This document shows positions 36,898 to 41,730 of a stretch of 64,000 bases of DNA, one piece after another. Location: contig NZ_CP017195.1 of NCBI RefSeq assembly GCF_006770285.1, positions 496,001 through 560,000 of the forward strand, in the 5' to 3' direction. The notes beneath the pieces are model-generated. The model saw nothing but the letters and a program-made list of their open reading frames with translations. It did no database searches and had not been told where the DNA came from. How positions within the stretch are numbered: the stretch's first letter is position 1; the number at the start of each line of letters is the position of its first letter. Origin of the DNA: Lactococcus paracarnosus (lineage in GTDB: Bacteria; Bacillota; Bacilli; Lactobacillales; Streptococcaceae). Made by a program: the position numbers and the translations under genes.

Positions 36898-36937
36898 AAA
36901 AACCGGATAGCGGTAAATCCGCTATCCGGTTTTTTTT
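36898..36937 (+). terminator. Strong terminator after the GH1 gene
   Basis: The stem AAAACCGGATAGCGG / CCGCTATCCGGTTTT around TAAAT is perfect, with a run of eight T. It forms the left border of the peptide locus. Confidence 0.92.
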
Positions 36938-37028: not shown

Positions 37029-37083
37029 TTGACACACCGATTATGATATTGTATAATAACATCATAAAGTAAGCGCTTACTTT
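37029..37083 (+). promoter_or_regulatory. Peptide-gene promoter with palindromic cre-like operator
   Basis: Consensus promoter TTGACA (37029-37034), 17 bp, TATAAT (37052-37057). An 18-bp perfect palindrome, AAAGTAAGCGCTTACTTT (37066-37083), begins at the expected start site. It fits the lactococcal cre pattern except at the last base and would act as a roadblock operator for CcpA or another LacI-family protein. Confidence 0.75.
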
Positions 37084-37106
37084 AAAAAATAAAAGGAGGA
37101 TTCAAA

Positions 37107-37277
37107 ATGAAACAATTAACAGTTAATGAAACTCAAAAGATTGTAGGTGGGGTATCTTGGGAGTGTTTGGAGTGCCGGTTTAAGAGTGCTGATCATGTAT
37201 TCAGAGCTACTGCAAGTCAAAGAGCCTATGAGCATGAATCACGATATGGCCACTATGGTGAAACAAGAATAAGATAA
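37107..37277 (+). CDS. Double-glycine-leader peptide precursor (putative bacteriocin or signal)
   Basis: 56-residue precursor with AGGAGG 8 nt before the ATG. The leader is MKQLTVNETQKIVGG (15 residues). Counted from the cleavage site it has Leu(-12), Glu(-8), Ile(-4), Gly(-2) and Gly(-1), the classical class II/ComC leader pattern. The predicted mature peptide has 41 residues starting VSWECLECRFKS and ending HYGETRIR. It has two Cys (C20, C23) and His at 30, 43 and 49. It is rich in Tyr, Arg and Glu, nearly neutral, and has no hydrophobic helix. The adjacent C39 exporter supports export and cleavage. Antibacterial activity is inferred from context; a signalling role is the alternative. Confidence 0.85.
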   Translation: MKQLTVNETQKIVGGVSWECLECRFKSADHVFRATASQRAYEHESRYGHYGETRIR

Positions 37278-37339
37278 TTTTTTGTCAAGACTGCTAAACG
37301 CGCGTGTAAACTAGTCACTAGTTAGTGATAATTATTAGG

Positions 37340-37376
37340 AAACTGCTATTGCATGACTGTCAATATGCAGTTTTTT
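37340..37376 (+). terminator. Hairpin terminator between the peptide gene and its transporters
   Basis: AAACTGC pairs with GCAGTTT, with an inner ATTG/CAAT stem, followed by TTTTTT. It should let the peptide mRNA accumulate in excess of the transporter message. Confidence 0.75.
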
Positions 37377-37395
37377 AGTTAAGTATGGAGGAAAC

Positions 37396-38265
37396 TTGTT
37401 AGTATTAAACAATATTTATAAAAAATATCAGGATAAAGTCATTCTAGAAGATATCTGTTTGACTTTAAACAATGGTATCTATGGCTTACTTGGTGCGAAT
37501 GGAGCTGGCAAAACGACGCTGATGAAAATGATTTGTGGCGTGATCAAACCAAGCTCTGGTCATATCCACTATGATGGTGAAGCGATAGGAAGTGGTCAAA
37601 GTCAACTCATCGATTGTCTGGGCTATTTACCTCAAGATTTTAGCTACTACCCGGAGTTTACCGCCTATGAATTCATCACCTATATGGCTACTTTAAAAGG
37701 GATGAGTAGAAGTGATTTTGAGAAGCAGGGACACGCTCTTTTACAGATGGTGGGACTGGACACAGTGAAACATGCTAAAATAAAGTCCTTCTCTGGTGGG
37801 ATGAAACAAAGATTAGGCATTGCCCAAGCGCTTTTAGGCGACCCAAAAGTTTTAATTCTGGATGAGCCAACTGTTGGTCTGGATCCCAAGGAAAGAATTC
37901 GCTTTCGTAATCTGATCAGTTCCTTGTCTAAAGATAAGATCATTATTTTATCAACGCATATTATTGGTGATATCGATGCAGTGGCAGACGAGATACTCAT
38001 TCTTAAAAAGGGTATCCTGCTTGAGCAGGCGACACCCCAATTATTATTAGAGAAAATAGACAACCAAGTTTGGGAAGTTGAAGTGGAGATAGACCTTGCT
38101 GATAAACTCAAAGCATCATACATTATTAGCAATCAAAAAGTTGTCAATAATCGGCTGATGCTACGGATTGTATCAAGTGTTTCGCCTATTGAGGGTGCCC
38201 ATCATGTGCAACCTAATCTGGAAGACTTGTATCTTTATTATTTTCCAAATATAGGAGAAAGTTAA
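37396..38265 (+). CDS. ABC transporter ATPase, candidate peptide immunity
   Basis: 289-aa ATPase of the multidrug/ABC-2 export type. Walker A GANGAGKTT (near 36-44), Q-loop LPQDF, signature FSGGMKQRLGIAQAL, Walker B VLILDEPTVGLDPKE and H-loop STHI. The start is TTG 37396 with GGAGG 4 nt upstream. It overlaps the permease gene by one base (TAATG). The pair most resembles self-protection transporters of bacteriocin and lantibiotic clusters; this role is inferred from location. Confidence 0.85.
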   Translation: MLVLNNIYKKYQDKVILEDICLTLNNGIYGLLGANGAGKTTLMKMICGVIKPSSGHIHYDGEAIGSGQSQLIDCLGYLPQDFSYYPEFTAYEFITYMATLKGMSRSDFEKQGHALLQMVGLDTVKHAKIKSFSGGMKQRLGIAQALLGDPKVLILDEPTVGLDPKERIRFRNLISSLSKDKIIILSTHIIGDIDAVADEILILKKGILLEQATPQLLLEKIDNQVWEVEVEIDLADKLKASYIISNQKVVNNRLMLRIVSSVSPIEGAHHVQPNLEDLYLYYFPNIGES

Positions 38266-39428
38266 TGTATATGTTATATAAATTTGAGCTGAAAAAGGTA
38301 GTCAAGACAAAATTATTTTTAGGTGTTTGCCTCGCTTTACTGGTAACCACTTTAGGGGCCATGTGGACTGTCTTCTACATATCTCCTATGGGGATTGGTC
38401 CCAAGGAGATGTCGAAGCGATCAGTTGTCCAGTATAACCAGAAATTTGCTAGACAGTATGAAGGCGATTTAACTGATAGTAAAATTAAGGAGGTTCTGAG
38501 TGATTATTTAGCTTTTTATAAGTCACGAAAACAAGACCGGAATAAAGACCAAGAGGAGATACCAAATAATGTCTTTTCCTATCGGATAGCTGATGCAGTG
38601 CTAAATCCTAAAGATAATCTGCCCAATCAAGTAGATAAAAATCCAAATGTATCGATAGATGACATACCAGTAAAGCCGATCAGTAGTTTGGGGATCAACA
38701 AAGATATAAAACCTATCAAATTAACAAGTTATTACGGGTGGTCCGATTTGTATAAGATGACAGAAATCATATGTCTCCCCATTGTGATGGCGATCATTGT
38801 GGCATGTTCGGGCATCTTTTCAAGCGAGCGTGCCGCAAATATAGATCAACTCTTGTTAGCGACTAAGCATGGTCGTAAGCGATTAACGACCTCGAAAATT
38901 TGTGCAGTAGGACTTGTTTCGGTTACTTTATTTCTTGTCACCAGTTTACTGATTTTGGGGTCATTCTTTATATTCTATGGCTTTGATGGCTGGAATGGCA
39001 GTATTCAGGCAAATTTTGAACTAGCAACATTTACCTTTCCAATCGCACTTAGCCACTTACAAGTTTATCTTGTCATGCTAGGCATTCAACTCTTTAACGT
39101 CCTATTTATCAGTAGTCTAGGTATTTTGATCTCCAGTTTTACAAATTCACCTTTTATATCTATGATCATATCATTAGTTATATTTGTTATACCAAAAGGC
39201 TTAGATAAACTCTTTACTGTAGGGACGTTACCCAACAAGGTGCAACAGTACTTGCCAATTAATAATTTTAGTGTCGATACCATCTTACAGAAGATGACTA
39301 ATAACGAGGAAGTTTTGCGTAATAGTTTCACAGCAAATCTATTAATCATTGGCGTCACAGCAAGTTTGGTTATGGTGGTGAGTCTAGTCGTCACGAGCAC
39401 ACATCAAAAAAAATATTATGCATCATGA
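38265..39428 (+). CDS. ABC-2-like permease, candidate peptide immunity
   Basis: 387 aa. One N-terminal membrane helix (about 16-40), an extracytoplasmic domain of about 120 residues that is charged and Lys/Asp rich, then five or so membrane helices (from about 165). The layout fits an ABC-2 permease with a large outside domain, as in transporters that expel peptides from the membrane. It is translationally coupled to the ATPase. I cannot place it in a named subfamily. Confidence 0.78.
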   Translation: MYMLYKFELKKVVKTKLFLGVCLALLVTTLGAMWTVFYISPMGIGPKEMSKRSVVQYNQKFARQYEGDLTDSKIKEVLSDYLAFYKSRKQDRNKDQEEIPNNVFSYRIADAVLNPKDNLPNQVDKNPNVSIDDIPVKPISSLGINKDIKPIKLTSYYGWSDLYKMTEIICLPIVMAIIVACSGIFSSERAANIDQLLLATKHGRKRLTTSKICAVGLVSVTLFLVTSLLILGSFFIFYGFDGWNGSIQANFELATFTFPIALSHLQVYLVMLGIQLFNVLFISSLGILISSFTNSPFISMIISLVIFVIPKGLDKLFTVGTLPNKVQQYLPINNFSVDTILQKMTNNEEVLRNSFTANLLIIGVTASLVMVVSLVVTSTHQKKYYAS

Positions 39429-39443
39429 GGTTAGGAGGTTACT

Positions 39444-41573
39444 TTGATCATTACAAGGGGGATTTTACAGCATGATCAGTCTGACTGTGGTGCTGCCGCG
39501 CTAGCTAGTGTCTTTAACATGCATCGTCTGTTAATACCTGTTACCCAGTTAAGAGAAACGATGCGAGTTGATAAATCAGGAGCTAGTATCTACGCAATCA
39601 TTAAGACAGCTGAAACGTATGGTATCAGAGGAGAAGGGTTAGTAGGGGATTTAGAGGAGCTAGCAGCTAGTATTGGCAGTAAGACCATTTCTTTACCAGC
39701 GATTTTACATGTTGAAATTAAACCTCAGGTAGGGCACTTTCTCGTGCTGATCAACTTAACTAGTCAATTTGCAAAGGTTTTTGATCCTGCATTCGGTATA
39801 AAAAAATTAAAAATAACAGAACTAAATAAACTCTGGACTGGTAATTTGATTCATTTTAACAGTTCTGATTTTAAAAAGTCATCTAGAAGTGTTTCGAAAG
39901 CGACGATAAGAAAAATGAAAGCTAACAATTTCATGCTTTCACTGTTTCGTCATGAAAAAAAATCTTTAGTTTGGATCACTATTTTATCCGTAGCGACTTT
40001 AATCATGTCATTCTTAGGCAGTTATTTGTATAAAGTCATCGTAGACGCAATCATTCAAAGTACATCAAAAGGTAATCTGGTAGCATCAATCTTTATTTTG
40101 CTAGCAGTTCTGTATGCTGTTCAAATGACTTTTAGTATCATTCAAGGAAGTGCTATTTCTAGATTAAGCTTTAGAATGAGCAGATCAGGAACGATGGCAT
40201 TCTATAATAAATTATCTAGCCTACCCAATGATTTTTTCAATAGATTCGATTCTGGTAATCTTATCTCTAGGTTTCAGTCAGTTCCAGATTTACTAGACAA
40301 AGTCGTTATCATGGTATTAGACTTATGTTTGTTGCTCTCATCAATTATTGGCAGCTCAATTGTTTTAATGTTGATCAGCCCTGTTTTGTATGGTCTCACG
40401 ATCTTAATTATGCTCCTTTACGGCTGTCTTGTTTTATCTTTTATCAAACCGATGAGCGAAAAAAATAAGGCAATACAGGTAAACCAAGCAAAAACGATTA
40501 CGCTTTTAAGGGAGTCTGTGGACGGTATTAGTACGATAAAATTGAGTTCAAGCCAGTCGTGGTTCAAATCAAAACTAGCAACGGTTATCGATCGGTTATG
40601 TCTAGATATTTCAAAACTGATACAACTATCTGTCACATCAGAATCCATAGTTGGCTTTATTGAGAGTGTTGGGATGATGGGGATATTTTGTTTAGGGAGT
40701 ATCTTTGTAACAAAAAAAACGATTACTTTAGGTGAGTTAATTGTCTTTAATTCATTAATGATTTACTTTTTCAGTCCCGCCAAAAAACTGATGATGATGC
40801 AAAAAGATGTACAAGATGCTAAAGTGCTTTATGATAGAATAAAAGATGTGATGTATGCGACTACTGAACTGGAAAGAGTTAGTAGATTTGTATCTCCATC
40901 AGCTGGCATAAGGAATAACTATTTGGCTTTGAATGGTGTAAGCTTTTCCTATAATCTAGATCAAGTTATACTGAATCAGATCGATATCACGATTGAACAG
41001 TATGCTAAAGTAGGGATAATAGGAAAGAGTGGGAGTGGCAAAACGACCGTCATCAAACTTCTAGCCACGTTATTATTTCCAGATAAAGGAGTTATGAGTT
41101 ATCGTGGGCAACTCATTAATAAGGAAAACTTGATAACATATAGACAAAAGATGACGTATGTTGATCAAGAGTCTTTTGCATTTGAGGGAAACCTGTATGA
41201 TAATATTGTGATGGGAATGACCAATATTGATGAAGATTGGTTAGGTACTCTGTGTCAAGTATTTGATATTTTTGATATGAGCAATCAAGGATTGGCCCTG
41301 TATATATTGGAGAATGGGAAAAATTTATCAGGTGGACAGAAACAAAAACTAGGATTGGTTAGAGCATTATTGACTAAACCAGAGATTTTAATCCTTGATG
41401 AGGCCACAAGCAAGATAGACAAAGCATCCGAGGAAAAAATCATAGATTTTATAATGACTATTGAAAAAATGACCGTTATTTCTGTATTTCATAACTTAGA
41501 CCTGGTTGACAAGTATGAAACGATACTAAACGTTGCGCAAAACGGAATTTATGAACCACTTAAACATAACTGA
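39444..41573 (+). CDS. C39-peptidase ABC exporter of double-glycine peptides
   Basis: Cleaves the leader after GG and exports the peptide. Peptidase C39 domain (1-135): Gln9, catalytic Cys15 in HDQSDCGAAALAS, His98 in VGHFLVLI and Asp114 in VFDPAFG. Membrane domain (about 155-440, six helices). ATPase domain (about 475-705): Walker A GKSGSGKTT, signature LSGGQKQKLGLVRAL, Walker B ILILDEATSKID and H-loop VFHNLD. All catalytic residues are intact and 709 aa is the family norm. The start is TTG with AGGAGG 5 nt upstream. No HlyD/LcnD-type accessory gene follows. Confidence 0.92.
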   Translation: MIITRGILQHDQSDCGAAALASVFNMHRLLIPVTQLRETMRVDKSGASIYAIIKTAETYGIRGEGLVGDLEELAASIGSKTISLPAILHVEIKPQVGHFLVLINLTSQFAKVFDPAFGIKKLKITELNKLWTGNLIHFNSSDFKKSSRSVSKATIRKMKANNFMLSLFRHEKKSLVWITILSVATLIMSFLGSYLYKVIVDAIIQSTSKGNLVASIFILLAVLYAVQMTFSIIQGSAISRLSFRMSRSGTMAFYNKLSSLPNDFFNRFDSGNLISRFQSVPDLLDKVVIMVLDLCLLLSSIIGSSIVLMLISPVLYGLTILIMLLYGCLVLSFIKPMSEKNKAIQVNQAKTITLLRESVDGISTIKLSSSQSWFKSKLATVIDRLCLDISKLIQLSVTSESIVGFIESVGMMGIFCLGSIFVTKKTITLGELIVFNSLMIYFFSPAKKLMMMQKDVQDAKVLYDRIKDVMYATTELERVSRFVSPSAGIRNNYLALNGVSFSYNLDQVILNQIDITIEQYAKVGIIGKSGSGKTTVIKLLATLLFPDKGVMSYRGQLINKENLITYRQKMTYVDQESFAFEGNLYDNIVMGMTNIDEDWLGTLCQVFDIFDMSNQGLALYILENGKNLSGGQKQKLGLVRALLTKPEILILDEATSKIDKASEEKIIDFIMTIEKMTVISVFHNLDLVDKYETILNVAQNGIYEPLKHN

Positions 41574-41705
41574 ACCTACTGAATTGCAAGTTATAAATCT
41601 TAAAGAGTTACCAGAGTAAAGTCTAATAGTTGGCAGTAAGATGTAAAAACTCAAGCTAATGATTGGTTTAGCACAAGCATTTAGAACGGTTAATCTTGTA
41701 TAGGA

Positions 41706-41730
41706 CAAAAGGCGCATTGCGTCTTTTTTT
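41706..41730 (+). terminator. Terminator at the right border of the peptide locus
   Basis: AAAGGCGC-ATT-GCGTCTTT followed by a T-run that leads directly into the tex -10 box. Confidence 0.75.

What the first reader, a model, noticed from the sequence alone, without database searches (positions are those of the whole stretch)
37029..41730. Self-contained double-glycine peptide locus between housekeeping genes
Seen: a consensus promoter, a 56-codon gene with a textbook GG leader, then ABC ATPase, ABC-2-like permease and a C39-peptidase exporter with intact Cys15/His98/Asp114. Strong terminators bound it on both sides (36898-36937 and 41706-41730), between a GH1 gene and tex. Three features suggest acquisition: two TTG starts, AT-rich codons in the exporter and the cassette-like borders. 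Known: C39 exporters mature class II bacteriocins, lantibiotics and signal peptides. Inference: this is a new bacteriocin or signal system, since I cannot match the core peptide to any described one.
Basis: partly seen in the sequence, partly recalled or inferred. Interest (0 to 1): 0.88.

Follow-up and report, generated by a model that had tools for sequence, protein, structure and literature searches.

The report
Zinc-finger-like bacteriocin-type peptide locus
A meat- and fish-associated Lactococcus carries a small secreted peptide, most likely a weapon against competing bacteria, with its own exporter and a probable self-protection pump; its Cys/His-rich, zinc-finger-like core defines a scattered family in related bacteria that matches no catalogued bacteriocin family.

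Summary
The locus is real and as described: perfect promoter, 56-codon GG-leader gene, ABC ATPase, ABC-2 permease, intact C39 exporter, flanking terminators. The 41-residue core matches no Pfam, NCBIfam, PHROG or PDB family above threshold. It has relatives in Lactococcus, Streptococcus and other Lactobacillales, in three forms. Form a has a GG leader and CxxC...H...H. Form b has a GG leader, has lost the second Cys and tail His, and has gained a C-terminal Cys. Form c has the same core behind a Sec signal peptide. GG forms lie beside a C39 exporter and/or this ABC pair (19 of 20 loci); Sec forms do not (0 of 8). Form-b genes lie in Blp-type bacteriocin islands, where one relative carries the same leader with a glycine-rich bacteriocin core. 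Permeases split into clades matching forms a and b. The ABC pair persists where the peptide is absent or broken, as expected of an immunity pump. Best reading: a class II-type, unmodified bacteriocin with ABC immunity, possibly zinc-stabilised. Neither activity nor metal binding is shown. The recent-acquisition idea fails: cassette and flanks have similar synonymous divergence. No regulator is adjacent, so signalling is less likely.

The parts
36898..36937 (.). intrinsic terminator (bidirectional hairpin) after the GH1 gene
   Evidence: 16-pair stem with T-run
37029..37057 (+). promoter, TTGACA-17 nt-TATAAT
   Evidence: 12/12 match; -10 box and surrounding sequence conserved in two sister species, the -35 intact in one and TTGACG in the other
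37066..37083 (.). perfect palindrome AAAGTAAGCGCTTACTTT, cre-like; possible CcpA operator
   Evidence: 13/14 match to a cre consensus taken from memory; conserved in all three sister species; function inferred
37107..37277 (+). precursor peptide gene: leader codons 1-15 (MKQLTVNETQKIVGG, 37107-37151), core 37152-37274 (VSWECLECRFKSADHVFRATASQRAYEHESRYGHYGETRIR)
   Evidence: homologues; dN/dS; AF2 model
37334..37379 (+). stem-loop with T-run between peptide gene and ATPase gene; probable attenuator or partial terminator
   Evidence: unrelated hairpins at the same place in L022, L023 and L080
37396..38265 (+). ABC ATPase (TTG start), probable immunity/efflux ATPase
   Evidence: PF00005 1.9e-31; best NCBIfam relatives GldA, DrrA and lantibiotic-protection ATPase, all below cut-off
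38265..39428 (+). ABC-2 permease, probable immunity/efflux permease
   Evidence: PF12679 3.8e-14; family search; tree
39444..41573 (+). C39-peptidase ABC exporter (TTG start), catalytic C15/H98/D114
   Evidence: PCAT1 (4ry2) 2e-87 and ComA (8hf7) 2e-74
39673..39684 (+). direct repeat TTGGCAGTAAGA, left endpoint of the exporter deletion seen in sister species G010
41630..41641 (+). direct repeat TTGGCAGTAAGA, right endpoint of that deletion
41707..41730 (+). terminator before tex
   Evidence: 9-pair stem with T-run

Best explanation
A class II-type, unmodified bacteriocin locus. The peptide is made with a double-glycine leader. The C39 exporter removes the leader after GG and exports a 41-residue core (calculated 4933 Da average, reduced). 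The core folds as a small beta-knuckle plus helix; Cys5, Cys8, His28 and His34 of the core (and possibly His15) are placed to bind one zinc ion. The mature peptide acts on related Gram-positive competitors. The ATPase plus ABC-2 permease protects the producer by expelling the peptide from its membrane or surface. Shown from sequence: gene layout, conserved ORF, leader and C39 catalytic residues, co-occurrence, and persistence of the ABC pair without the peptide. Inferred: cleavage site, killing, zinc binding, pump direction, possible CcpA control.
For: Core conserved under purifying selection between Lactococcus and Streptococcus. GG-leader members lie beside a C39 exporter and/or this ABC pair at 19 of 20 loci, Sec-leader members at 0 of 8 loci. 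Form-b members sit among other GG bacteriocin genes with BlpA-like exporters or response regulators. In G101 the locus that carries the peptide in G095 holds the same leader (MDTKVMSQFEVMDEDMLTAIEGG) fused to a glycine-rich bacteriocin core. Permeases form separate fully supported clades for forms a and b. The ABC pair survives without the peptide in eight close relatives of G095 and in G078; with a broken peptide in S. thoraltensis (GG to GE, stop at codon 22, exporter gone), G124 and G020. G010 lost most of the exporter between 12-bp repeats but keeps the peptide and ABC pair.
Against: No activity data. The core is hydrophilic (GRAVY -0.99, charge about +1), unlike typical pore-forming class II bacteriocins. 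Sec-form relatives lack the ABC pair. Some GG-form loci (L029, L030, L070, L071, L073, L077) have a C39 exporter but not this permease, so immunity there must differ. L. piscium CNCM I-4031 has been called non-bacteriocinogenic, with contact-dependent inhibition (reference list and text of PMC5270698).
Confidence: 0.7

Rival explanations
1. The peptide is a cell-cell signal: exported by C39 and sensed by a receptor, with the ABC pair as sensor, importer or export helper.
For: GG-leader peptides exported by C39 transporters are often pheromones; in G001/G003 an HTH regulator of Rgg type (298 aa) lies next to the peptide.
Against: No regulator or kinase adjacent in the window. The core is conserved across genera (TASQRAYEHESRYGHYG identical between Lactococcus and two streptococci), whereas pheromones usually diverge to stay private. 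Form-b genes are extra members inside bacteriocin islands.
Confidence: 0.12
2. The peptide is a secreted metal-handling peptide (zinc or copper capture) and the ABC-2 pair is a detoxification pump.
For: CxxC and three His in 41 residues; several Sec forms carry His-rich stretches before the core.
Against: Form-b members drop two of the putative ligands and keep the same ABC partner. The adjacent ABC-2 pair is not a solute-binding metal importer. A cre-like rather than metal-type operator lies at the promoter.
Confidence: 0.07
3. The mature peptide inhibits competitors, but the ABC-2 pair is a second secretion transporter rather than immunity.
For: Direction of ABC-2 transport cannot be read from sequence; L069 has the ABC pair without a C39 exporter nearby.
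Against: C39 exporters suffice for GG peptides. The ABC pair is kept where the peptide is absent, which fits resistance, not secretion. No modification enzyme is present.
Confidence: 0.08

Closest known systems
Class II double-glycine bacteriocins of Blp/Com islands in Streptococcus
   Same: GG/ComC-type leader, C39 exporter, relatives inside such islands, exchange of cores behind one leader
   Different: Core has no glycine-zipper or TM helix; Cys/His-rich and hydrophilic; partner is an ABC ATPase-permease pair instead of a small or Abi-type immunity protein
Lactococcin 972 family (Sec peptide plus ABC)
   Same: Non-modified secreted peptide with an ABC pair; some members here are Sec-secreted
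   Different: No Pfam match to that family; here the ABC pair goes with GG forms, not Sec forms; different permease family
Lantibiotic immunity ABC transporters (LanFEG, BcrAB type)
   Same: DrrA/GldA-like ATPase with ABC2_membrane_2 permease beside a GG-type peptide
   Different: ATPase scores below the cut-off of the lantibiotic-protection model (177 vs 310 bits); no lanthionine enzymes
ZnF-UBP / short CCHH zinc-binding domains
   Same: WxCxxC...H-x5-H arrangement; weak Pfam (E 0.026 for a relative) and Foldseek (E above 5, prob 0.15) resemblance
   Different: Not significant by either method; secreted, 41 residues only; second Cys and tail His lost in form b

Membership tests
Class II (unmodified) GG bacteriocin | GG leader before a short core | tested here: met
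   MKQLTVNETQKIVGG; TIGR01847 13.9 bits, just under its 15.7 cut-off
Class II (unmodified) GG bacteriocin | C39 exporter with catalytic Cys/His/Asp | tested here: met
   C15, H98, D114; PCAT1 and ComA homologue
Class II (unmodified) GG bacteriocin | no peptide-modifying enzyme in the locus | tested here: met
   only the four genes between GH1 and tex
Class II (unmodified) GG bacteriocin | antimicrobial activity of the mature peptide | not testable with these tools
   needs culture or synthetic peptide
Class II (unmodified) GG bacteriocin | dedicated immunity | tested here: inconclusive
   ABC pair co-occurs, follows peptide form and outlives the peptide, but protection is not shown
Class IIa (pediocin-like) | YGNGV-C-x4-C box | tested here: not met
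   core is WECLEC; no Pfam hit
Lactococcin 972 family | match to the family profile in Pfam | tested here: not met
GG pheromone system | cognate kinase/regulator or Rgg adjacent | tested here: not met
   none in the locus or among the flanking genes examined
Zinc-finger domain (zf-UBP or C2H2) | significant profile or fold match | tested here: not met
Zinc-finger domain (zf-UBP or C2H2) | zinc binding by C5, C8, H28, H34 of the core | not testable with these tools
   ligands conserved in most forms a and c; AF2 model pLDDT 74

The most novel reading that the evidence does not exclude
The core is a metal-dependent bacteriocin: a one-zinc CCHH mini-fold that one branch of the family keeps, while another replaced the metal site by a disulfide (second Cys and tail His lost, C-terminal Cys gained), with export switched between C39 and Sec and a dedicated ABC-2 immunity pump following the GG forms.
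Probability: 0.33. Interest if true: 0.75.

Novelty: new variant of a known kind. Interest (0 to 1): 0.6.

Why it matters
If true, this is an uncatalogued bacteriocin family with a hydrophilic, zinc-finger-like core, found in food lactococci, streptococci and other Lactobacillales, with a recognisable immunity pump that can be used to find more members. It also gives a testable candidate for inhibition by bioprotective L. piscium-group strains, whose mechanism was reported as not elucidated (PMC5270698); whether strain CNCM I-4031 carries the locus was not tested here. The apparent swap of a metal site for a disulfide in a secreted peptide would be a useful small case of fold evolution.

Tried and rejected
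Core against Pfam, NCBIfam, PHROGs and PDB sequences: nothing above threshold. No match in phages or plasmids at E up to 1. Foldseek on the core model: no significant hit. Permease AF2 model too poor to search (pLDDT 50). An empty-site test was not possible: gene order upstream of tex is not conserved outside the three sister species. Recent acquisition rejected on synonymous divergence. First-search hits with stop codons inside (L013, L015-L017, L020) judged chance. Literature searches for zinc-type GG bacteriocins and for core motif strings found nothing; the library holds open-licence papers only. One row of the first structure job came from a genome search locus (L003); it was accepted, and no further such rows were sent.

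Full report
Observation. The four-gene unit at 37029-41730 is present as described. The promoter is a 12/12 sigma-70 match, the only one in the 5 kb scanned, and terminator-like hairpins flank the unit. The ORFs, starts and lengths match. The exporter has C39, ABC membrane and ATPase domains, carries C15, H98 and D114, and is closest among solved structures to PCAT1 and ComA. The window lies in a 2.27 Mb single-contig genome; Lactococcus piscium DSM 6634 has the identical peptide and 97-98% identical ATPase, C39 exporter and tex proteins.

Is the small ORF a gene? Yes by conservation. Against the copy in Streptococcus saliviloxodontae, whole-gene dN/dS is about 0.19, and the C-terminal half has dN 0.06 with dS 0.72. 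The stretch TASQRAYEHESRYGHYG is identical in Lactococcus and two streptococci, while the neighbouring ATPase is 54-55% and the permease 44-46% identical. A ribosome binding site AGGAGG precedes the ATG.

Family. A profile search of 335 Streptococcaceae genomes found the core in 28 at E up to 0.01; a few of the weakest are probably chance. A search of 395 genomes of the order found it in 14, including several outside the family. Three forms appear. Form a: GG leader, WxCxxC...H...H (window, S. saliviloxodontae, G225, G001/G003, G353). Form b: ComC-like or GG leader, W-x-C-x-D-G-Y...WH...C-x-V-Y, the second Cys and the tail His lost and a C-terminal Cys gained (G114, G130, G211, G228, G095, G285, G121). 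Form c: the form-a core behind a Sec signal peptide (G013, G022, G018, G033, G466, G614, G617). A C-terminal Cys is found mostly where the second Cys of CxxC (Fisher p 0.002) and the tail His (p 9e-5) are missing; the sequences are related, so this is descriptive, and the script scored the tail His of G466 (DH) as absent. W18, C20, S27 and H30 are invariant in the 19-sequence alignment, so the zinc reading rests on C20, C23, H43 and H49 in forms a and c only. A three-sequence AF2 model of the core (pLDDT 74) shows strand 2-5, helix 21-32 and strand 36-39. Weak resemblance to ZnF-UBP appears in Pfam (E 0.026 for a relative) and Foldseek; neither is significant.

Neighbours. Scanning the loci with profiles, 19 of 20 GG-leader loci with an intact ORF have a C39 exporter and/or the ABC ATPase-permease pair nearby (L148 has neither), whereas 0 of 8 Sec-leader loci do. 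L074 (GG form without a called start codon) also has neither. In L066, L072 and L143 other GG peptides lie near form b, and L066-L068 and L072 also have a BlpA-like C39 exporter. In G101 the locus that carries the form-b peptide in G095 holds the same leader joined to a glycine-rich class II core. That places the peptide in a bacteriocin role.

The ABC pair. A reverse search found this permease family in 33 of 335 genomes. A tree of 29 permeases separates the form-a and form-b partners with full support. The pair is present without a peptide in eight near relatives of G095 and in G078, with a broken peptide in S. thoraltensis (GG to GE and a stop at codon 22, exporter absent), and with decayed copies in G124 and G020. 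More distant permeases without a peptide may serve other substrates. In sister species G010 the exporter is cut after about 80 residues, exactly at one of two 12-bp repeats (39673 and 41630 here), while peptide and ABC pair are intact. Retention of a pump after loss of the peptide is the usual signature of immunity. A stem-loop sits between peptide gene and ATPase gene here and in three other lineages with unrelated sequence; it could give much peptide and little pump. The fold is only mildly better than shuffles in the window (z -1.2) and strong in L023 and L080 (z -4.4, -4.9).

Regulation and history. A perfect 18-bp palindrome, cre-like, lies just after the -10 box and is conserved in the three sister species; CcpA repression is an inference. 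Synonymous divergence of cassette and flanks is similar among the three species, so the unit has been inherited vertically in that clade. GC is slightly low in the exporter.

Assessment. The evidence fits a class II-type bacteriocin with ABC immunity. Against it: no activity data, a hydrophilic core, and Sec forms without the pump. Signalling is possible but has no adjacent receptor. No curated family or paper searched describes this core; BAGEL, antiSMASH and UniProt were not available, so absence from those is untested.

Noticed in passing
L155 6934-9897 (own genome, about 2,171,000-2,176,000): A second zinc-finger-like GG peptide, MRLLSDEVLRKETGGFSWFCCWCGKAGGSKTTFLRHAQANVFCQGLMISW, with ATPase, small permease, a stand-alone C39 domain (131 aa) and a further ABC half-transporter; relatives in other Streptococcaceae genomes (G014, G023, G020, G059).
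   Followed up: partly
L154 7462-14793 (own genome, about 1,255,000-1,263,000): A separate bacteriocin-type island: C39 exporter (741 aa), accessory protein (486 aa) and three GG peptides with leaders ending EEMM(Y/N)VDGG.
   Followed up: no
L021 3857-7345: L. piscium DSM 6634 has extra genes between GH1 and the peptide, including a large (872 aa) secreted-looking protein with repeated domains containing Cys and His motifs; absent from the window.
   Followed up: no
L152, L137, L140, L146: Small putative single-TM proteins (38-54 aa) lie directly downstream of several Sec-form peptides: possible immunity proteins of the Sec branch.
   Followed up: no
L022 7880-7990: Upstream of the S. saliviloxodontae peptide a stretch with CTATACTATCAGTGTAG is tandemly duplicated, possibly a regulator site.
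   Followed up: no
L029 1540-8812: In G003 (and G001) the peptide lies between an Rgg-like regulator and genes for a large lipoprotein (solute-binding type), a C39 exporter, ABC permeases and an HlyD-like protein: an unusual mixed operon.
   Followed up: no
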